A stretch of DNA of 64,000 nt from Halomonas citrativorans (lineage in GTDB: Bacteria > Pseudomonadota > Gammaproteobacteria > Pseudomonadales > Halomonadaceae). Under the pieces are notes generated by a model. The model was not told where the DNA came from. It ran no database searches and saw only the letters and a list, made by a program, of their open reading frames with translations. This document shows positions 17,978-25,476 of the stretch, piece after piece. The stretch spans positions 1-64,000 of the forward strand of contig NZ_FUKM01000011.1 in assembly GCF_900163645.1 (NCBI RefSeq). Reading direction: 5' to 3'. Position numbers and translations under genes: made by a program. Each line of letters starts with the position of its first letter. Within the stretch, counting starts at the first letter, position 1.

Positions 17978-18003
17978 GCATCTATCGCTAAGAAGAGCGC
18001 TTA

Positions 18004-18480
18004 TCACTTACCGAGATAGGCGTTCAGCATCCAGATGGTTTTTTCCTGCTCGCGAATGTAGTCGCTGGCTAGTGAGGCTGTCCCTTCATCATCAGCGTCA
18101 GAGGCGAGTGAGAGCACGTCACGCTGTAGCTCAATCAGAGTTTGATAGCCCTTGATAATGCCGTTAACGCAGGCTTTACCGTCGTGTACGTCTTTATCTT
18201 CCTGAATATGCGAAAGCGTGGCGTAGTCACTGTAGGCATGTACCGGCTTGTGACTCAGGGTGAGGATACGCTCGGCGACTTCATCTACCTTGGTCAGTAG
18301 GTCCGTGTAAAACTCTTCAAACTTGGCGTGCAGTTCAAAAAAGTCGCTACCCTTCACGTTCCAGTGGTAGCCGCGCACGTTCATGTAAAAAATCTGATAG
18401 TTCGCCAGCAGGTGGTTGAGTTTCTCGGCAAGCTGGCTGGCACTGCCTTCATGAAGGCCGATGCTATTGGTATCGGTCAT
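18004..18480 (-). CDS. dps: DNA starvation/stationary-phase protection protein Dps
   Basis: A 158-residue ferritin-like protein that forms a 12-subunit shell, oxidises Fe2+ with peroxide and protects DNA. The inter-subunit ferroxidase site is recognisable in NVRGYHWNVKGSDFFELHAKFEEFYTDL (histidine, histidine, aspartate/glutamate positions at about 36-65). The N-terminal tail has no lysine-rich stretch, so direct DNA binding as in E. coli Dps is uncertain. Two adjacent palindromes at 18499-18530 lie just upstream of the start and may be involved in control. Confidence 0.93.
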   Translation of the reverse strand: MTDTNSIGLHEGSASQLAEKLNHLLANYQIFYMNVRGYHWNVKGSDFFELHAKFEEFYTDLLTKVDEVAERILTLSHKPVHAYSDYATLSHIQEDKDVHDGKACVNGIIKGYQTLIELQRDVLSLASDADDEGTASLASDYIREQEKTIWMLNAYLGK

Positions 18481-18498
18481 GCTGTCTCTCCTTGTTGG

Positions 18499-18530
18499 AG
18501 CCGTGTAGCACGGCTATCAAATCGTTTGAT
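18499..18530. promoter_or_regulatory. Twin palindromes upstream of dps
   Basis: AGCCGTG-TAG-CACGGCT (18499-18515) is followed directly by ATCAAA-TCG-TTTGAT (18516-18530). Both are perfect inverted repeats with three-base centres, starting 19 bases upstream of the dps start codon. The first could form a hairpin in the dps leader; the second looks like an operator for a dimeric regulator. Confidence 0.45.
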
Positions 18531-18713
18531 TAGCATAAAACGCTGCTGGAACATTGCAAAACAGGTTTTTTGCATCGTACTCATAGCGTTATGACATTAC
18601 CGTGACGGCAACACCGCCCGGTTTTAATAACTGGATCTTAAAACGGACCATGTATCGACGTGGTTTTCACGAATGCTGCCTACCAATAGTAATGCTGCCG
18701 TTCGAGATGTTTT

Positions 18714-19853
18714 TCAAGGGGCCGCCGGGGTTAACCATAAACGAATAATTGTTTCACAGCGTGCCGCCAGCAACTCGGCTGTTCTGGGTAACGCCTGTTC
18801 CAGCGTCATGGGGCCATCGGCCAAGGCAAAGGCCGCGGTTACACCTTCATCAAGACAGGCTTGCCAGCCATCGCCCAGGCTGCCCGCTAAAATAACCACT
18901 GGTTTACCCAAGCGCTTGGCCGCACGGGAAACGCCAATAGGTGTTTTACCCGACATGCTTTGCCCATCCAGCCGCCCCTCACCGGTAATGACCAGGTCGG
19001 CGTTATTGAGCAGGGTGGGCATCTTCGCGTGCTGCATAATCAGCTCGATGCCCGGTTTTAGCGTCGCGTTAAGAAACGCGCTGGCTGCAAACCCCATTCC
19101 GCCTGCGGCACCTGCGCCGGGTAGGTCTCGGTAGTCATGCGCCAACGTGCTGGCGCAAATATCGGCAAAGCGGCCCAGCGCTTGGTCAAGCTGAGCTACC
19201 TCTTCAGGGGAGGCGCCTTTTTGAGGGCCAAATACCGCACTGGCGCCCCGCTCACCCAGCAGCGGGTTATCCACATCTACCGCTGCTTCCACGTTGAGTG
19301 ATGCCAGACGTGGGTCCAGTCCGGAAATATCCAGCGATTCAAGGCCTGCAAGCGCAGCACCGCCTGGCGCAAGTGGCTTGCCATGTGCATCCTGAAGCCT
19401 GGCGCCCAAGGCTTGTAGCATGCCAGCGCCGCCATCGTTGGTGGCGCTTCCTCCCAGCAGTAGCAGTACGTTTTCGGCGCCCTGGTTAAGCGCTGCGAGA
19501 AATAACTCGCCTACCCCAAAGGTGGAGGTTTGTAGCGCGTTGCGCTCTTGAGGGCTTAAGTGTTGTAATCCGCTGGCTTCTGCCAGTTCGATAAACGCGG
19601 TACGCTGTTCGCTAAGCCAACCCCAGGCAGCATCACGGGGTCGACCAAGTGCATCGTGAACCGTTTGATAGCACCGCTTGGCACCGGTTGCGGCAATTAA
19701 TGCATCCAGGCTTCCTTCGCCACCATCAGCCAACGGGCAGCAGTGTGTTTGCGCGTCGGGGACCGCACTACGTACGCCTTTAGCCATCGCCTTGGCTGCT
19801 AATTCAGCGCTTAGGGCGTCTTTAAAACTATCGGGGCAAAGCAGGATATTCAT
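18714..19853 (-). CDS. Glycerate kinase
   Basis: A 379-residue kinase of the GarK/GlxK family that phosphorylates D-glycerate (usually to 2-phosphoglycerate) in glyoxylate or sugar-acid breakdown. Hallmarks are the N-terminal CPDSFKDALSA, the DGGEGSLDAL segment, LLLGGSATNDGGAGMLQALG in the middle, and VITGEGRLDGQSMSGKTPIGV near residue 290. The start at 19853 gives this canonical N-terminus and has a GGAGA site; an upstream extension would overlap the divergent lipoprotein gene. The neighbours give no pathway context. Confidence 0.93.
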   Translation of the reverse strand: MNILLCPDSFKDALSAELAAKAMAKGVRSAVPDAQTHCCPLADGGEGSLDALIAATGAKRCYQTVHDALGRPRDAAWGWLSEQRTAFIELAEASGLQHLSPQERNALQTSTFGVGELFLAALNQGAENVLLLLGGSATNDGGAGMLQALGARLQDAHGKPLAPGGAALAGLESLDISGLDPRLASLNVEAAVDVDNPLLGERGASAVFGPQKGASPEEVAQLDQALGRFADICASTLAHDYRDLPGAGAAGGMGFAASAFLNATLKPGIELIMQHAKMPTLLNNADLVITGEGRLDGQSMSGKTPIGVSRAAKRLGKPVVILAGSLGDGWQACLDEGVTAAFALADGPMTLEQALPRTAELLAARCETIIRLWLTPAAP

Positions 19854-19974
19854 CGCACAATCTCCGCAAATGACGGTCTCTAATCTATTGTAATGATGAG
19901 AGGAGCTTAACGCGCTGCTTGCTGATAGACCAGTTGCTGATAGACCCGTTGTGATCATCGCTCGAGGATCTAAC

Positions 19975-20535
19975 ATGAAGTCGATACCGATTAGCTTAAC
20001 CTGCCTGCTGGCGTTGGCTGGCTGCCAGGTGACGCCAGACCGTCTGCCCCAGGCTGAGCCTGCCCCCTCAGCGGCCTGCTATTTTTCTAACAGTGCTGAA
20101 AGAGACTCCCAAGAAGTGCTTCGCCAAAGCGTTGCGCTGCTTACCGAATCGGGATTTGAACTGAATTCGACGGATGCGGCGTTAGGCCTGGTCAGCGCTA
20201 GCCGCACCCAAGCGCTGCGTGGCTATTACGATCCTTATGATAACGCCTACGGTTATGGTCGCGGCATACGTGCCTTCGGCGGGTTCGGGATTGGAGGTGG
20301 TGGCGGTATCGGCATTGGAATGGGCTTTGGGGGCGGGCTTCAACAGCAGCCAGTCGAGGTCGAACGTGTCTCGTTACTGATCCACGACGACCATATTCGC
20401 ATTTCGCGCGATATCCGCCGCTTCGACCATCTGGGCGATATGCGGGAGTCGTACAGTGCGAGCAACGATGATTTTTGTCAGCGCTTTCAAACGGCGCTTG
20501 AGCAATACAGGGTGCCAGCCGGGAGAGGGTTATGA
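19975..20535 (+). CDS. Glycine-rich lipoprotein of unknown function
   Basis: A 186-residue predicted lipoprotein. The signal peptide ends in a clear lipobox (LALAGC, cysteine at about residue 18). After a proline-rich linker, residues 30-75 resemble the start of small envelope proteins with a repeated alpha/beta unit (SVALLTESGFELNSTDAALGLVSASR). A glycine-rich stretch at about residues 100-125 precedes a second conserved-looking part (VERVSLLIHDDHIRISRDIRR). Start chosen at 19975 for the GAGG site. It overlaps the next lipoprotein gene by four bases. No function is claimed. Confidence 0.75.
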   Translation: MKSIPISLTCLLALAGCQVTPDRLPQAEPAPSAACYFSNSAERDSQEVLRQSVALLTESGFELNSTDAALGLVSASRTQALRGYYDPYDNAYGYGRGIRAFGGFGIGGGGGIGIGMGFGGGLQQQPVEVERVSLLIHDDHIRISRDIRRFDHLGDMRESYSASNDDFCQRFQTALEQYRVPAGRGL

Positions 20536-20906
20536 GGCGAGGCCGTTGGGATATCAGGTGGGTAGGCGTGATGCTTTTGGGTGCATGGCTTACCGGCTGT
20601 GCAACGACGTCGCCCTCTGTCCCGCGTGAGCTTGTTTATCCAACCTCTGTCGATACGACGTTTCGAAGCGCTGTCGAGCTGATGATGAAGCAAGGATATG
20701 TGATACGCCACGCCGATTTGTCCCTGGGGCGTGCAGAAGCCTCGCTAGCCCGCTGGCCTGAATACCGTTTGCAGCTGCAGGTGAGTGAAGCGGGGAGTGG
20801 TAGCCAAGTGAGTGTCATGGCCTGGCGTGGCAATCAACCATTGGCACCTTATTTATTGGATCCGTGGCTAGTGGACTTACAAGCAACGTTGGGATTAGCA
20901 CCGTGA
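20532..20906 (+). CDS. Small lipoprotein of unknown function
   Basis: A 124-residue predicted lipoprotein with lipobox LTGC at about residues 20-23. The mature part (VDTTFRSAVELMMKQGYVIRHADLSLGRAEASL) shares the pattern of the repeat in the preceding lipoprotein: a helix, then G-(Y/F)-x-hydrophobic, then LG-x-(V/A)-x-AS. The two genes may therefore be paralogous units. The start overlaps the previous stop (ATGA), and its own stop overlaps a GTG start of the DUF1007 gene (GTGA), so three genes are translationally coupled. Confidence 0.72.
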   Translation: MRRGRWDIRWVGVMLLGAWLTGCATTSPSVPRELVYPTSVDTTFRSAVELMMKQGYVIRHADLSLGRAEASLARWPEYRLQLQVSEAGSGSQVSVMAWRGNQPLAPYLLDPWLVDLQATLGLAP

Positions 20907-21592
20907 AGCAGTGTTGTGATCAAAGAGTAAGTACTTTTTATAGCGGCAAATGTTGGACGCTGGGCGCTGGATTGGTCGGCTTGCTGATGAGCCCGCTTGC
21001 AACCGCACATCCGCATGGCTGGATTGATTTCAGTATCCGGGTCATGACTGACGAGGAGGGCGTTGTGCGTGGGTTGCATCACGCATGGCGGATGGACCCT
21101 TTTTATAGCCTGGTGGTGTTTGAAGAGCTCCAGCATGTGGATGGCGTTAGCCTGGAAGTTGGGCTTGACCGATTAGGCACTGAAATACGCAATAATCTTG
21201 CGGGTCAGCACTACTTTACAGACGTTCGCCTGGATGGCGAGCCGCTGGCATTGGGTGAGGTAACCGAATACACGGCCATGGAACATGACGGGCGGCTTAA
21301 TTTTACGTTTATCCTCCCGCTACAAACGCCGCAACCCTTGGCGGGTCATGTGCTTGATTATCAAATATACGATCCAACGTATTATATCGAGATGGTTCAT
21401 GAGTCAGACAATAATCAGCCTAAAGACGACGCCTTGGTGCTGCACGGGGAACCTGCCTGCGAGCTAAGCATCTTAATCGCCGAACCTGACCCTGAGCTGG
21501 TCCTGCAAGCTGCTCTGCTGGACCAAGATGAGGAAGCCGAACCAGGTCTTGGACGATTTTTTGCCGAAACAGGGCGTGTTGATTGCCGCTAA
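20903..21592 (+). CDS. DUF1007-family periplasmic protein
   Basis: A 229-residue exported protein of the DUF1007 family, usually encoded beside NicO-type nickel/cobalt or zinc permeases. A hydrophobic segment ending SPLATA acts as signal peptide, and the mature chain begins HPHGWIDFSIRV, the histidine-rich start typical of the family and a plausible metal ligand. YQIYDPTYYIEM is another family block. The GTG at 20903 overlaps the previous stop by two bases and is preferred to an upstream GTG at 20864. The NicO permease starts 55 bases downstream. Confidence 0.85.
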   Translation: MKQCCDQRVSTFYSGKCWTLGAGLVGLLMSPLATAHPHGWIDFSIRVMTDEEGVVRGLHHAWRMDPFYSLVVFEELQHVDGVSLEVGLDRLGTEIRNNLAGQHYFTDVRLDGEPLALGEVTEYTAMEHDGRLNFTFILPLQTPQPLAGHVLDYQIYDPTYYIEMVHESDNNQPKDDALVLHGEPACELSILIAEPDPELVLQAALLDQDEEAEPGLGRFFAETGRVDCR

Positions 21593-21647
21593 TCACAAGC
21601 CGCAGACCCGACGAATTCTATGAATGTATGAAATAAGGTAGTGCTTT

Positions 21648-22682
21648 ATGCGATCACTCGTTATGCGCAGGCCCATTATGCTGATTGCGCTATTAGCACT
21701 TGCTGCCGGGGCAGTGATATTTCTATGGGAAGGGGGATTACAGAGCACAAGCTACCAGATGCTGGCTTGGCAGCGGAGCTTTAACCGCTCGCTCACGCTG
21801 GCGATTACCGAGCTTGCCCGCGAACCTTCTCAAGCCACCTGGTGGGTATTATTGAGCGTCAGTTTTGGTTACGGCGTTTTTCACGCGGCAGGGCCAGGGC
21901 ACGGGAAAGCGGTGCTGGCAACGTATCTGGCCTCTCATGGTGGCGCCGTGCGGCGAGCATTAGGGCTTTCGTTTGCCGCGTCTCTGTTGCAAGGCGTGAC
22001 TGCCATCGTCATGGTGGCCATTCTGGTGCACGGCCTGGGGTGGCTAACGCGTCAGGCCATGGGCAGTGTTGTTTGGGTTGAGCAGGCCAGTTTTTTACTC
22101 ATAACGCTATTGGGTATTTGGCTATGCGTTCGGGCTTACAAGCAGCTGCGCCGCGCTTATCAGCCTATTGCGTTTTATCCGGTTCAGCACGACCACGGCA
22201 ATGGCCATAGCCATCATCTCAATCACGACCACAGTCATGGCCACCACCACTGCTGTGGCGGCGCGCATCATATTGAACCCGAGCAGGCGTTGGATTGGCG
22301 TACAGCCATCATGACGGTCGGCGCGATTGGTATGCGTCCTTGCAGTGGCGCGGTACTTTTACTCGGCGCCGCCAGCCTATTGGGGCAATTTTATATTGGC
22401 GTTTTATCGGTACTGGCCATGTCGCTGGGTACAGGAATTACGGTGTCGGCGCTGGCGCTTGCCAGCGTGTTTGCACGCCGCTGGGCAACGCGGCGTTTAG
22501 CCAGGCAGCAGCACGCTTCTCAGTCGGCGCATAAAGCGGTGGGTTGGGCGGCGCTGGCCGGCGGCATGTTGATTGTTCTATTGGGCGTTATGCTTGTCAC
22601 AACGAGTGTTTCTCAACCCGCCGGGGCGCCCTTGCTTGGCGAGCCGCCCGCAAGGCAAAGCAGCCCGCTTTTAAGGCCCTGA
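21648..22682 (+). CDS. NicO/RcnA-like nickel/cobalt-type permease
   Basis: A 344-residue inner-membrane protein with about six to seven hydrophobic segments. The first cytoplasmic-side motif GVFHAAGPGHGKAVLATYL and the later GAIGMRPCSGAVLLLG are characteristic of the NicO superfamily (RcnA, NrsH). Between them lies a loop very rich in histidine (HDHGNGHSHH, HDHSHGHHHCCGGAHH, about residues 180-205), a metal-capture segment. Direction of transport and metal (nickel, cobalt or zinc) cannot be told. The DUF1007 partner directly precedes it. Confidence 0.88.
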   Translation: MRSLVMRRPIMLIALLALAAGAVIFLWEGGLQSTSYQMLAWQRSFNRSLTLAITELAREPSQATWWVLLSVSFGYGVFHAAGPGHGKAVLATYLASHGGAVRRALGLSFAASLLQGVTAIVMVAILVHGLGWLTRQAMGSVVWVEQASFLLITLLGIWLCVRAYKQLRRAYQPIAFYPVQHDHGNGHSHHLNHDHSHGHHHCCGGAHHIEPEQALDWRTAIMTVGAIGMRPCSGAVLLLGAASLLGQFYIGVLSVLAMSLGTGITVSALALASVFARRWATRRLARQQHASQSAHKAVGWAALAGGMLIVLLGVMLVTTSVSQPAGAPLLGEPPARQSSPLLRP

Positions 22683-22688
22683 CAGCAA

Positions 22689-23108
22689 CTAAGCGTTTAA
22701 GCGGTCAATATGCGCAATAAGTTGATCGCGCAGGTCGGCAAGTGGCTCCAACTCATACGGTTCGGCGCTGCCATTGCCCCATACCGGCGCAGGCCAAGTG
22801 GCATCAGCCTGGTGGCGCACGACCACATGGATATGCAGCTGCTTGACGACGTTGCCTAAGGTGGCGATATTCAGTTTATCGCCTTCGAAGAGGGTTTTCA
22901 TCACGCTGCCCAGTTGGGTTGCTTCCTGCCATAGCTGGGCCTGGTCAGTCTCGGAAAGCTCAAATACTTCGCTGATATTATTCAGCCGGGGCACCAGAAT
23001 CACCCAAGGATAGCGCGCATCATTCATTAACAGCACACGACAAAGCGGCAGGTCGGCGATGGGGAAGGTGTCAGTATCCAGACGTTGGTCGAGAGTGAAA
23101 TCGTTCAA
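22689..23108 (-). CDS. HIT-family protein
   Basis: A 139-residue histidine-triad-superfamily protein, likely a nucleotide hydrolase or transferase. The family block LHIHVVVRHQADATWPAPVWG near residues 88-108 shows H-x-H but arginine-containing sequence instead of the third histidine of the classical HxHxHxx motif; this form recurs, from memory, in a proteobacterial HIT subgroup. NDARYPWVILVPR and the N-terminal part fit. It ends six bases from the convergent permease gene. Confidence 0.85.
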   Translation of the reverse strand: MNDFTLDQRLDTDTFPIADLPLCRVLLMNDARYPWVILVPRLNNISEVFELSETDQAQLWQEATQLGSVMKTLFEGDKLNIATLGNVVKQLHIHVVVRHQADATWPAPVWGNGSAEPYELEPLADLRDQLIAHIDRLNA

Positions 23109-23202
23109 AGGGCGCGCTCCAGGTAGTCTTCAGTGGTGTATATGATAGCCGATGCTTTGGGTAGATGACGCGGTGTAGGGAGCAACCTTCGGGAAAACAG
23201 GC

Positions 23203-23260
23203 GAAAGTACCCAAACACTGTTACGCTGAAAGTACCCCTTGGAAATGGTAGGCGCTACCA
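23203..23260 (+). promoter_or_regulatory. Repeats upstream of the entericidin gene
   Basis: GAAAGTACCC occurs at 23203-23212 and again at 23228-23237 in the same orientation, 25 bases apart, followed by the palindrome TGGTAGGCGCTACCA at 23246-23260. They lie 37-95 bases before the start codon and are candidate control elements. Confidence 0.4.
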
Positions 23261-23296
23261 GAGGGGCTGTTGCTAGACACGTTAAGGAGAACTCAA

Positions 23297-23428
23297 ATGA
23301 AAAAGCTTTTAGCGACTGGTTTTATTCTACTTATGACAGCAGGCGCGTTGGCCGGTTGTAACACGGTGGCTGGCGCAGGCCAGGATGTAGAAAGAGGCGG
23401 CCAGGCCGTTCAGGACGCCGCAAGCTAA
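23297..23428 (+). CDS. Entericidin A/B-family small lipoprotein
   Basis: A 43-residue lipoprotein precursor. A lysine-starting signal peptide (MKKLLATGFILLMTAGALAG) ends in lipobox ALAGC, and the mature part NTVAGAGQDVERGGQAVQDAA is the amphipathic repeat typical of entericidins. In E. coli the related EcnA/EcnB are stress-regulated membrane lipoproteins once proposed as antidote and toxin. AAGGAGA lies at the right distance from the ATG at 23297. A hairpin terminator follows at 23456-23479. Confidence 0.88.
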   Translation: MKKLLATGFILLMTAGALAGCNTVAGAGQDVERGGQAVQDAAS

Positions 23429-23455
23429 GGTCCATGAACCCTTGACGATGTCGAA

Positions 23456-23485
23456 CGGGCTAGGCAATTGCCTGGCCCGCTTTGT
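23456..23485 (+). terminator. Terminator after the entericidin gene
   Basis: CGGGCTAGGC-AATT-GCCTGGCCCG (one G-T pair) followed by CTTTGTGTTT. Thirty bases after the stop codon. Confidence 0.7.
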
Positions 23486-23523
23486 GTTTGGCCTGCATGT
23501 TAATAATCATTTGGGGTAGGTTT

Positions 23524-23877
23524 ATGAATACGTGGCGATCCATTTCTGGGTTTCAGTACGTGAAATTATTAGCCGCCAGCGGCGGCATTATTCTGCTTTC
23601 TGCATGCGCTACCGGTTCTGACGCGGCTAGAACGTCGGGTTCGGGTGATCAAAATGGCCAGCCGATACCCATGGACAGCTGCGATACCGCCTCAATTCGA
23701 TACGCTATAGGCGAGGCGTTCGATGAAGCGAACGTTTCGCAGTTGCAAAGCGAAAGTCAGTCGCGCCAGGTACGCGTGCTACGTCCAGGCGATGTGGCCA
23801 CTATGGACCACCGACCGGACCGCTTGAATATCCATGTTGATAGTAATGAAACGGTCGAAGCTTTACGCTGCGGTTAA
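23524..23877 (+). CDS. I78-family peptidase-inhibitor-like lipoprotein
   Basis: A 117-residue predicted lipoprotein with lipobox LLSAC near residue 25. The mature domain has the layout of the I78 (potato-inhibitor-I-like) family: a cysteine early in the domain (MDSCD), VRVLRPGDVATMDHRPDRLNIHVD and a terminal cysteine (EALRCG) that could bond to the first. In this family the loop around the RPGD/DHRPDRLN region is the protease-binding part. ATG at 23524 is chosen for the GGGTAGG site. The last four bases overlap the convergent LysE gene. Confidence 0.8.
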   Translation: MNTWRSISGFQYVKLLAASGGIILLSACATGSDAARTSGSGDQNGQPIPMDSCDTASIRYAIGEAFDEANVSQLQSESQSRQVRVLRPGDVATMDHRPDRLNIHVDSNETVEALRCG

Positions 23878-24479
23878 CGCAATATCAGCACTACACAAGC
23901 GGCGGTGAGCACTCCCATGGTGACGTTAAATATTCGCCAGGCACCGTCGCTTTTAATCCAATGACCGATCGCTATGCCAAACCCCGCCCATAGCGCCAAA
24001 CAGGGGAAGGCAACCAGCTCTACAAAGCCCACCAGGATTAACGCGTTTGCAACGGTTGAACCTTGATCAGGAATAAACCCCGCGATTAACGCAAGCCCCA
24101 TGACCCACGCCTTGGGATTGGCAAATTGAAACGCGGCGGCCTGCCAGAAGGTAAGGGGTACGCTGTGTGCCTTGCTCTTTAAATCAGGCGGTGGCGCGCT
24201 GGCAATTTTCCATGCGAGGTAGAGCAAGTAAGCACTGCCTAACCAGCGCAGGGCTAATTGTAGGGAAGGATAGCGCTCAAACAGCACGCCTAGCCCCAAA
24301 GCAATACCGAAAAACAGCAAAAAGCAGCCGCCGACAATACCCACCATATGCGGCAGCGTGCGCTTAAAGCCAAAGTTGGCGCCTGACGCGGTTAACATAA
24401 TGTTATTAGGGCCGGGCGTCAGGGTCATCGACATCATGTAAAGGGCGGCTGGCCCAAGAATAACCCACTGACTATTCAT
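23874..24479 (-). CDS. LysE-family amino-acid exporter
   Basis: A 201-residue inner-membrane protein with about six hydrophobic segments. The N-terminal MSMTLTPGPNNIMLTASGANFGF is the signature of the LysE/RhtB superfamily, and FQFANPKAWVMGLALIAGF is a second family block. The substrate is an amino acid or derivative, not determinable here. The start overlaps the end of the ion-transporter-like gene by eight bases, so the two form one transcript. Confidence 0.9.
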   Translation of the reverse strand: MNSQWVILGPAALYMMSMTLTPGPNNIMLTASGANFGFKRTLPHMVGIVGGCFLLFFGIALGLGVLFERYPSLQLALRWLGSAYLLYLAWKIASAPPPDLKSKAHSVPLTFWQAAAFQFANPKAWVMGLALIAGFIPDQGSTVANALILVGFVELVAFPCLALWAGFGIAIGHWIKSDGAWRIFNVTMGVLTAACVVLILR

Positions 24480-25476
24480 AACGATCCTTCCAACGCTGGC
24501 GATTCACCTGCTCTTTAAGCATTTCAAGCATATCGTAAAGCACCAATTCTGTGATTCGCTGGCTGCCTTCCTCGACGGTCAGCCAGCTGTTAAAGCCGCT
24601 CTCTGCGGTGCGTTCAACCACTTGTCTAAACTCGGGAGAGTGGATACCCAGCGCAAGCTCATCCACTAACCGTTGGGCAACGCCGCTAATAGACGCCTGC
24701 ATGGCATTTGTGGCGGTTTGGCCCATCGGCAGGCGGTGCAAGCGCTGAATCTCAGGGCTTTCACGTAGTGTGCGGCTTACAAGTTCATCAATGGCTTTCA
24801 TAGCGTGAGTGCGATTTTGTTGGTATGCCTCGCCCACGGTACTTTCCAGACGCTGCACAATTTCACTAATCAACTGTTTTTTACGCGGCATGATGACTCG
24901 GTCGACCACTCGCTCAGTTAGCGAGTCGCTGGCCAGAATTTGCTGCTGAACATTGTCCAAAAGCCGTAGCGCGATACGATCAGAAAGCTCTTCAAGCAGG
25001 ATATCGTAATATTTAAAGAGAAACTGATATATCGACCAGTGAGTAATGTTAATAAGCCGCAGACGATGTAAGCGATGAAGTAATGACACCGCACGCAGTA
25101 TTCTGAGTAGGCGAAAACCGCTTAATGGAATACAGCCCAGAACGTCATACCAGTGCACAAAGGGGTAGAAAAACCAGCGATGATAGCGCCTTTCGGCCAC
25201 GGCGACGGTCCAGCCCAGCAGAACATCGGCAACAAAAAAAGCCACAAAGAACAAATCAATCGTAAAAAAGCGGCTATGGATTTGAGTGTCGTAAAATGTA
25301 TGAAAGGTGGGTGCCAAGCCTGCAATGGCCTGGTTAACAGGCTCGATTAAAAACAGTGAATCAAAGAGCAAAAGCCCTAAATTAAGCACCACCGCGATGA
25401 GAATCAGCAAATCCCAGCCAATATGAGCGTACTCAACGGGCTTAGGCAATTGTGGGTAGCGCCGTCTGGTGGGCAT
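24472..25476 (-). CDS. Voltage-sensor/ion-channel-like membrane protein
   Basis: A 334-residue protein. Residues 20-165 hold about four hydrophobic segments, the last of which, FRLLRILRAVSLLHRLHRLRL, carries an arginine every third residue like the S4 helix of voltage sensors. I do not see a clear pore loop (no TVGYG-like filter) or S5-S6 pair. The remaining half is hydrophilic and helical (ALRLLDNVQQQILASDSLTERVVDRVI) and may be an oligomerisation or regulatory domain. Proteins of this type are commonly labelled ion transporter. Function unknown. Confidence 0.72.
   Translation of the reverse strand: MPTRRRYPQLPKPVEYAHIGWDLLILIAVVLNLGLLLFDSLFLIEPVNQAIAGLAPTFHTFYDTQIHSRFFTIDLFFVAFFVADVLLGWTVAVAERRYHRWFFYPFVHWYDVLGCIPLSGFRLLRILRAVSLLHRLHRLRLINITHWSIYQFLFKYYDILLEELSDRIALRLLDNVQQQILASDSLTERVVDRVIMPRKKQLISEIVQRLESTVGEAYQQNRTHAMKAIDELVSRTLRESPEIQRLHRLPMGQTATNAMQASISGVAQRLVDELALGIHSPEFRQVVERTAESGFNSWLTVEEGSQRITELVLYDMLEMLKEQVNRQRWKDRYE

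What the first reader, a model, noticed from the sequence alone, without database searches (positions are those of the whole stretch)
19975..22682. Coupled cassette of two lipoproteins, DUF1007 and a NicO permease
Two lipoproteins overlap each other and the DUF1007 gene by four bases, followed by a metal permease with a histidine-rich loop. The lipoproteins seem to share a domain pattern. DUF1007-NicO pairs are known, but a lipoprotein partnership may be an undescribed envelope part of a metal system.
Basis: partly seen in the sequence, partly recalled or inferred. Interest (0 to 1): 0.55.

Follow-up and report, generated by a model that had tools for sequence, protein, structure and literature searches.

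The report
Paired envelope lipoproteins beside zinc-type genes
Two neighbouring lipoprotein genes in a salt-loving bacterium make sister proteins of the same predicted fold and form a self-standing pair; the metal-transport genes beside them look like later neighbours, so the pair is an uncharacterised envelope family rather than a clear part of a metal pump.

Summary
In detail: 19975-22682 holds two lipoproteins (LP1, LP2), a DUF1007 protein and a NicO permease, with 4-nt overlaps LP1/LP2 and LP2/DUF1007. LP1 and LP2 are sisters: profile homology without signal peptides (E 6e-7; best of 100 shuffles far below) and matching predicted helix-grip folds. LP2's best solved matches are Flpp3 and the BamC N-terminal domain. 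Neither reaches a Pfam or NCBIfam cut-off. LP1-LP2 is the conserved unit (adjacent in 96 of 96 genomes holding both). DUF1007 is next to it in 47 of 100 lipoprotein-bearing genomes of the family, 3-4 kb away in 8, elsewhere in 22, not found in 23. In 25 loci read outside the family DUF1007 and NicO were not found; a BamE-like lipoprotein was, in 21. DUF1007-NicO is a zinc-type pair: away from the lipoproteins it lies near znuABC in 6 of 20 loci read. I read LP1-LP2 as kin of an undescribed BamE-like/helix-grip/helix-grip lipoprotein operon, to which a ZevAB-type pair was joined. Against me: that pair seems to have reached this locus more than once, and a coupled LP2/DUF1007 start is available in 42 of 64 loci. 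Function is untested.

The parts
19975..20535 (+). LP1, 186-aa lipoprotein: signal peptide and lipobox (Cys17, +2 Gln), two further invariant Cys (35, 168; possible disulfide, inferred), helix-grip-like domain with a low-confidence Gly-rich loop (residues 95-121)
20532..20906 (+). LP2, 124-aa lipoprotein: lipobox (Cys23, +2 Ala), single compact helix-grip domain from residue about 28 to the end; overlaps LP1 by 4 nt (ATGA)
20903..21592 (+). DUF1007 protein (ZevA-type), signal peptide and HPHGW at the expected mature N-terminus; GTG start overlaps LP2 by 4 nt
   Evidence: H[PA]H.[WF] motif in 58 of 59 tree rows
21648..22682 (+). NicO permease (ZevB/RcnA-type) with a His-rich loop, residues 181-208
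18714..19853 (-). glycerate kinase, divergent upstream neighbour (start inferred from the family match); flank of the locus
22689..23108 (-). HIT-domain protein, convergent downstream neighbour; present in 80 of 80 named loci whether or not DUF1007-NicO is there

Best explanation
LP1 and LP2 are a translationally coupled pair of sister lipoproteins, each with one helix-grip domain, most likely on the periplasmic face of the outer membrane (Q or A after the lipid Cys; inferred). They are kin of a three-gene lipoprotein operon (BamE-like lipoprotein, LP1-like, LP2-like) seen in other families and classes of the phylum; the window's genus has only the last two. Most likely they act together as an envelope accessory complex, either docking on other outer-membrane machinery as BamC and BamE do, or binding a hydrophobic ligand as Bet v1-like folds do (inferred). 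DUF1007-NicO is a separate ZevAB-type zinc pair that became joined behind LP2 in one large lineage of the family, and probably again at least once; in this genus it shares the operon and overlaps LP2. Shown: anatomy, homology, predicted folds, neighbourhood statistics. Inferred: location, complex, zinc as substrate, any activity of LP1/LP2.
For: LP1-LP2 adjacent in 96 of 96 genomes holding both. DUF1007-NicO present as an intact pair in 64 of 80 named loci and not detected in 16, where LP2 ends -12 to 143 nt from the HIT ORF. LP and DUF1007 presence not associated. In 25 loci read outside the family no DUF1007/NicO, but BamE-like in 21 (17 of 21 leaving out the four loci used to build that profile) and LP1-like plus LP2-like in 15; the Halomonas proteins are homologous to these (LP2 E 2.2e-9, LP1 E 5.5e-10, signal peptides included). 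Matching folds; LP2 vs Flpp3 Z 13.4, rmsd 2.1, 92 aligned, vs BamC-N Z 9.7, and Foldseek BamC-N E 2.3e-5. DUF1007-NicO away from the lipoproteins lies near znuABC in 6 of 20 loci read and near a TonB receptor of one cluster in 4 of 20.
Against: The DUF1007 tree needs 4 changes of the 'LP-linked' label (at least 3 forced): L111 (adjacent to LP2) and L108 (about 4 kb off, a long branch of unsure place) lie outside the main LP-linked clade, so the pair probably reached this locus more than once, which hints at selection for the association. A start giving a 4-nt LP2/DUF1007 overlap is available in 42 of 64 loci. Three unlinked copies nest in the LP-linked clade, so linkage may be older there and lost. 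No BamE-like partner was found in 19 same-genus genomes, so the three-gene story does not apply to the window itself. LP1's model is less sure and its best Foldseek hit to BamC is weak (E 3.2e-3). The outside surveys are insensitive: the LP2-like profile missed 3 of 3 Halomonadaceae genomes that have LP2.
Confidence: 0.66

Rival explanations
1. One reading: LP1-LP2 are the outer-membrane/periplasmic part of a zinc (or nickel/cobalt) uptake system whose inner-membrane part is DUF1007-NicO.
For: Gene order and overlap in the genus; probable repeated arrival of DUF1007-NicO at this locus; TonB receptors near 4 of 20 DUF1007-NicO pairs away from the lipoproteins and just beyond HIT in three LP loci (Pfam on one).
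Against: No association of presence in the family (Fisher p 0.57); 23 of 100 LP-bearing genomes without a DUF1007 match; none in 25 loci read outside the family; no conserved metal-ligand pattern in LP1 or LP2; no Zur-like box at 11 of 14 or better in the window.
Confidence: 0.17
2. LP1-LP2 (and in other lineages the BamE-like protein) are accessory subunits or a side branch of the outer-membrane beta-barrel assembly machine, or a paralogous machine.
For: BamE domain over the Pfam cut-off in 3 of 6 first-gene proteins tested (L192 E 5.3e-7, L195 3e-5; L248 1.2e-5); BamC-N-like fold of LP2; subthreshold sequence hit of the pooled family profile to BamC-N (E 0.31); a separate BamC-type gene exists, so this would be an addition, not a replacement.
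Against: Of the other three first-gene proteins one is just under the cut-off (L255) and two show no BamE match (L194, L260). Helix-grip is a common fold and Flpp3 fits better than BamC. In one search five unrelated chains score better than BamC-N. One domain each. No bam gene was noted in the neighbourhoods read, though I did not search them for it. BamE-type domains occur in other lipoproteins such as OsmE (passage of PMC3359395).
Confidence: 0.25
3. DUF1007-NicO here exports nickel/cobalt like RcnA rather than importing zinc.
For: NicO's only NCBIfam match is the RcnA-type efflux transporter (53 bits, far under its cut-off of 195); His-rich loop.
Against: Relatives lie near znuABC in 6 of 20 loci read; published ZevAB is a zinc-acquisition system (passages of PMC3872050 and PMC8000910; that ZevA is DUF1007 and ZevB NicO is recalled).
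Confidence: 0.2

Closest known systems
ZevAB zinc-binding/uptake system of Haemophilus influenzae (Rosadini et al. 2011; paper not held; seen through passages that cite it)
   Same: DUF1007 protein followed by a NicO/NiCoT permease (domain make-up recalled)
   Different: here downstream of and overlapping two lipoprotein genes; substrate untested; no Zur-like box found in the window
BamC (N-terminal helix-grip domain, 2yh6/2laf)
   Same: lipoprotein with helix-grip fold
   Different: BamC has two helix-grip domains and a BamD-binding N-terminal region (passages of PMC3359395); LP1 and LP2 have one domain each, no Lipoprotein_18 match, and the genome has a separate 330-aa ORF with a Lipoprotein_18 match just over cut-off
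Flpp3 lipoprotein (6pny, 9nlt, 2mu4), described as similar to Bet v1 with an internal hydrophobic cavity (passage of PMC4688374)
   Same: best structural match of LP2: Z 13.4, rmsd 2.1, 92 residues
   Different: 6% identity; not among the hits of the family profiles
BamE/OsmE-type lipoproteins
   Same: the gene before the pair in most loci read outside the family is BamE-like; Pfam BamE over cut-off in 3 of 6 tested
   Different: 132-158 aa in those tested; not found in the window's genus

Membership tests
ZevAB-type DUF1007-NicO pair | DUF1007 domain with HxH at the mature N-terminus | tested here: met
   Pfam E 1.8e-46; HPHGW after the signal peptide; motif in 58 of 59 tree rows
ZevAB-type DUF1007-NicO pair | NicO permease next to it | tested here: met
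   Pfam E 4.6e-31; both in 64 of the 64 named loci that have either
ZevAB-type DUF1007-NicO pair | zinc-dependent regulation (Zur box) | tested here: inconclusive
   recalled consensus: none at 11 of 14 or better in the window; such sites in 7 of 20 loci with DUF1007 away from the lipoproteins, none in 13 of 20, three of them znu-linked
ZevAB-type DUF1007-NicO pair | zinc uptake | not testable with these tools
   znuABC nearness of relatives only
BamC | Pfam Lipoprotein_18 profile | tested here: not met
   no match at E<=1 for LP1 or LP2
BamC | two helix-grip domains | tested here: not met
   one each in the models
BamC | helix-grip fold | tested here: met
   LP2 Foldseek E 2.3e-5 to 2yh6; LP1 weaker, E 3.2e-3
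Flpp3-like lipoproteins | same fold | tested here: met
   LP2 Z 13.4 and 12.7; next unrelated row 10.6
Flpp3-like lipoproteins | detectable sequence kinship | tested here: inconclusive
   not among hits of profiles A2, A6, A8
BamE-like/LP1/LP2 lipoprotein operon (defined here) | tandem LP1-like and LP2-like lipoproteins | tested here: met
   homology; order
BamE-like/LP1/LP2 lipoprotein operon (defined here) | BamE-like lipoprotein as first gene | tested here: not met
   the gene before LP1 in the window is glycerate kinase, divergent; no match in 19 same-genus genomes

The most novel reading that the evidence does not exclude
A BamE-like lipoprotein plus two single helix-grip lipoproteins form an undescribed outer-membrane accessory complex scattered over more than one class of the phylum; Halomonadaceae run a two-subunit version, and it may share descent with Flpp3 and with the domain from which BamC was built.
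Probability: 0.22. Interest if true: 0.65.

Novelty: new variant of a known kind. Interest (0 to 1): 0.42.

Why it matters
It moves the question from 'a lipoprotein part of a metal pump' to a lipoprotein family that reaches no Pfam or NCBIfam cut-off here, kept as an overlapping gene pair, with a fold shared by a beta-barrel assembly subunit and by a lipoprotein that a recent abstract calls unique to Francisella (PMC12723454; abstract passage). If the three-gene operon encodes a complex, it is a tractable new envelope module. For zinc biology it warns that lipoproteins next to DUF1007-NicO should not be annotated as metal proteins on synteny alone.

Tried and rejected
Rejected: (1) LP1/LP2 as the genome's BamC: a separate 330-aa ORF at G000:C24:85507-85842 matches Lipoprotein_18 (26.4 bits, cut-off 25; the same search matched in 22 of 41 family genomes). 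(2) LP1/LP2 as metal proteins by motif: among Cys/His only Cys17/35/168 in LP1 and Cys23, His60 in LP2 are conserved at 85% or more. (3) RNA regulation: no Rfam match over gathering score in 18000-24500. (4) Promoters or terminators: counts near shuffles (4 vs 2.1 and 4 vs 3.4). (5) Plasmid carriage: one hit, on a 1.8-Mb Halomonas record. (6) Sequence link to Flpp3: not among hits. (7) A known domain in family members: scattered weak Pfam matches only (best 0.0037 among 33 LP1 rows, 0.0024 among 32 LP2 rows). (8) Literature: no held paper with 'lipoprotein', 'BamE domain', 'operon', 'Halomonas', nor 'Bet v1', 'lipoprotein', 'outer membrane', 'BamC'; one irrelevant for Halomonas/ZnuA/lipoprotein/zinc uptake. 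Listings only: 'DUF1007', 4 papers; 'smpa'/'bame'/'tandem lipoprotein', first 12 of 49; 'BamC'/'helix-grip'/'lipoprotein', 7; 'Rosadini'/'DUF1007', 15 of 358. These searches do not show that nothing is in print.

Limits: the family table covers 120 of 121 genomes (one without any match was never named); second partial hits of split genes were left out when typing it. 'Elsewhere' includes 19 genomes where the genes are on different contigs. The 80 named loci were selected by LP2, so LP2 is there by construction. Outside the family I read 25 of the 29 genomes hit; they were chosen by LP1/LP2-like hits, some loci are short, DUF1007 and NicO were sought there with the single window proteins, and a few hits (L196, 17.9 bits) may be chance. 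Of 36 family genomes with DUF1007 away from or without the lipoproteins I read 20; in two of these the ORF caller did not return DUF1007. The DUF1007 tree left out near-copies and ORF calls of 330 aa or more; several rows have long branches. Surveys found matches in 11 of 369 class genomes and 15 of 398 phylum genomes, 4 of the latter in the window's family, but those profiles miss many known family members, so true frequency is unknown.
Full report
Observation. LP1 (19975-20535) and LP2 (20532-20906) overlap by ATGA, LP2 and DUF1007 (20903-21592) by GTGA, and NicO (21648-22682) follows after 55 nt. DUF1007 and NicO are clear Pfam members; LP1 and LP2 match no Pfam family at E<=1, and LP1 has only two NCBIfam matches at E 0.11 and 0.16, far under cut-off. 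The window lies in Halomonadaceae: the closest named LP2 relatives are Vreelandella and Halomonas.

The two lipoproteins are sisters. Without signal peptides the LP1 and LP2 profiles align over 45 columns, helix 1 and the next strands (score 45.9, E 5.8e-7; the best of 100 column shuffles gave 17.5 and the reversed profile 13.4). AlphaFold models share the order of elements: LP2 beta-alpha-beta-beta-beta-beta-alpha, mean pLDDT 89.6; LP1 the same plus one strand, with a Gly-rich loop of pLDDT under 50 at residues 95-121, mean 78.9. For LP2 the best solved structures are Flpp3 (Z 13.4, rmsd 2.1, 92 aligned) and, among many near Z 9-10, the BamC N-terminal domain (Z 9.7); Foldseek ranks BamC-N first at E 2.3e-5. 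For LP1 the matches are weaker: a DUF4468 protein Z 9.2 (rmsd 5.8), BamC-N Z 8.1; no Foldseek E under 0.001. LP1 also has invariant Cys35 and Cys168, which could form a disulfide (inferred).

What is the conserved unit? In 121 genomes drawn from the family, LP1 is matched in 97, LP2 in 99, DUF1007 in 91. LP1 and LP2 are adjacent in 96 of 96 genomes with both. Of 100 genomes with either lipoprotein, DUF1007 is within 600 nt in 47, 3-4 kb away in 8 (two genera), on another contig or far away in 22, and not matched in 23; 14 genomes have DUF1007 without lipoproteins and 6 of the 120 tabulated have neither. Presence is not associated (Fisher p 0.57). Where DUF1007 is 3-4 kb off, a sensor histidine kinase gene lies between in the two loci read, followed in one by a response-regulator gene (DctB/DctD-like is my reading of the architecture).

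In 80 named loci found by LP2, LP1 and HIT are detected in 80 of 80 and DUF1007-NicO as an intact pair in 64, between LP2 and HIT; in the other 16, LP2 ends -12 to 143 nt from the HIT ORF. So DUF1007-NicO behaves as a two-gene cassette, present or absent, inside a fixed frame. LP1/LP2 overlap by 4 nt in 74 of 79 loci scored; a start giving a 4-nt LP2/DUF1007 overlap is available in 42 of 64 (availability, not proof of use).

Outside the family. Profile searches of 293 genomes of the order (20 matched, 8 of them outside the family), 369 of the class (11 matched) and 398 of the phylum (15 matched, 11 outside the family, 10 of these in other classes) gave scattered relatives. The profiles are not sensitive: the LP2-like one missed the three Halomonadaceae genomes in its own set. 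I read 25 of the 29 outside genomes: LP1-like and LP2-like together in 15, a BamE-like lipoprotein in 21 (first in order in 20), DUF1007 or NicO in none. The BamE-like profile came from four of these loci, so the independent count is 17 of 21. Pfam's BamE domain is over cut-off in 3 of 6 of these proteins tested, just under in one and not matched in two. The usual order is BamE-like, LP1-like, LP2-like, LP1/LP2 overlapping by 1 or 4 nt or with short gaps. Halomonas LP2 matches the LP2-like profile over 108 columns (E 2.2e-9) and LP1 the LP1-like one (E 5.5e-10); these two include the signal peptide. The BamE-like gene was not found in 19 same-genus genomes including the window's own. One 2.0-Mb genome has a cluster of five such proteins around a BamE-like gene (L254).

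What is DUF1007-NicO? Of 36 family genomes with DUF1007 away from or without the lipoproteins I read 20: 6 have znuA-, znuB- and znuC-like genes nearby (Pfam checked on L206 for ZnuA and ABC-3; the rest by sequence cluster) and 4 a TonB receptor of one cluster (Pfam checked on L200). Zur-like palindromes at 13 or 14 of 14 lie upstream of DUF1007 in L206, between DUF1007 and NicO in L217, and in the znu-linked locus L218; 13 of the 20 loci have none at 11 or better, three znu-linked ones included, and the window has none (consensus recalled; a plain-composition shuffle gave 3 in 208 kb, the loci 14). Upstream of LP1 in the 80 named loci only one site reached 11 (L139). This fits, without proving, the published zinc system ZevAB (passages of PMC3872050, PMC8000910 and PMC10563805), whose domain make-up I recall and did not see.

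Result against my reading. In a tree of 59 DUF1007 proteins, 39 of 41 lipoprotein-linked ones fall in one clade (95/98) with 3 unlinked, but two linked ones lie elsewhere: L111, directly behind LP2, and L108, about 4 kb off and flagged as a long branch of unsure place. The label needs 4 changes, 3 forced by well-supported branches. The cassette therefore probably reached this locus more than once, or was replaced there, which could reflect a selective link.

Mechanism. Shown: anatomy, sister relation, predicted folds, neighbourhood behaviour. Inferred: outer-membrane location (Q or A after the lipid Cys), LP1-LP2 complex, accessory role in the envelope, zinc as NicO substrate. BamC membership fails (one domain each, no profile match), and a separate Lipoprotein_18 match exists in the genome; this does not exclude that they work like BamC. 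PMC3359395 (passages) describes BamC's two helix-grip domains and argues that another lipoprotein subunit, BamF, arose independently in alpha-proteobacteria, so lineage-specific lipoprotein additions have a precedent.

Verdict. The sequence reading was accurate; the metal-envelope partnership is at best local. The more interesting object is an unnamed family of paired helix-grip lipoproteins, usually led by a BamE-like lipoprotein in the loci read outside this family.

Noticed in passing
The second and third proteins tested reach no Pfam or NCBIfam cut-off.
   Followed up: partly
L254:4569-7458: Cluster of five LP1/LP2-like proteins on both strands around one BamE-like gene in a 2.0-Mb genome of another class; at least the first has no clear lipobox.
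   Followed up: no
L257:4384-5286 (-): An LP2-like lipoprotein fused to a C-terminal NTF2-like domain (Pfam Cds6_C, E 2.7e-16); a possible clue to function.
   Followed up: no
L108:7240-10912; L109:6403-8178; L100, L107: The slot behind LP2 also takes a dCache sensor histidine kinase gene, with a response regulator in L108 (DctB/DctD-like); in L103, L110 and L111 a TonB receptor gene lies just beyond HIT (Pfam on L109 and L103).
   Followed up: partly
L206, L207, L208, L209, L214, L218: DUF1007-NicO pairs of Halomonadaceae near znuABC, with Zur-like palindromes in three of the six at 12 of 14 or better (L206, L214, L218): supports a place in zinc homeostasis.
   Followed up: partly
L111, L108: Two lipoprotein-linked DUF1007 proteins lie in other parts of the DUF1007 tree than the rest (L108 on a long branch): probable repeated arrival or replacement at the same locus.
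   Followed up: partly
window 23482-23877: Small protein with a lipobox-like stretch and an I78 peptidase-inhibitor domain, two genes downstream of NicO.
   Followed up: no
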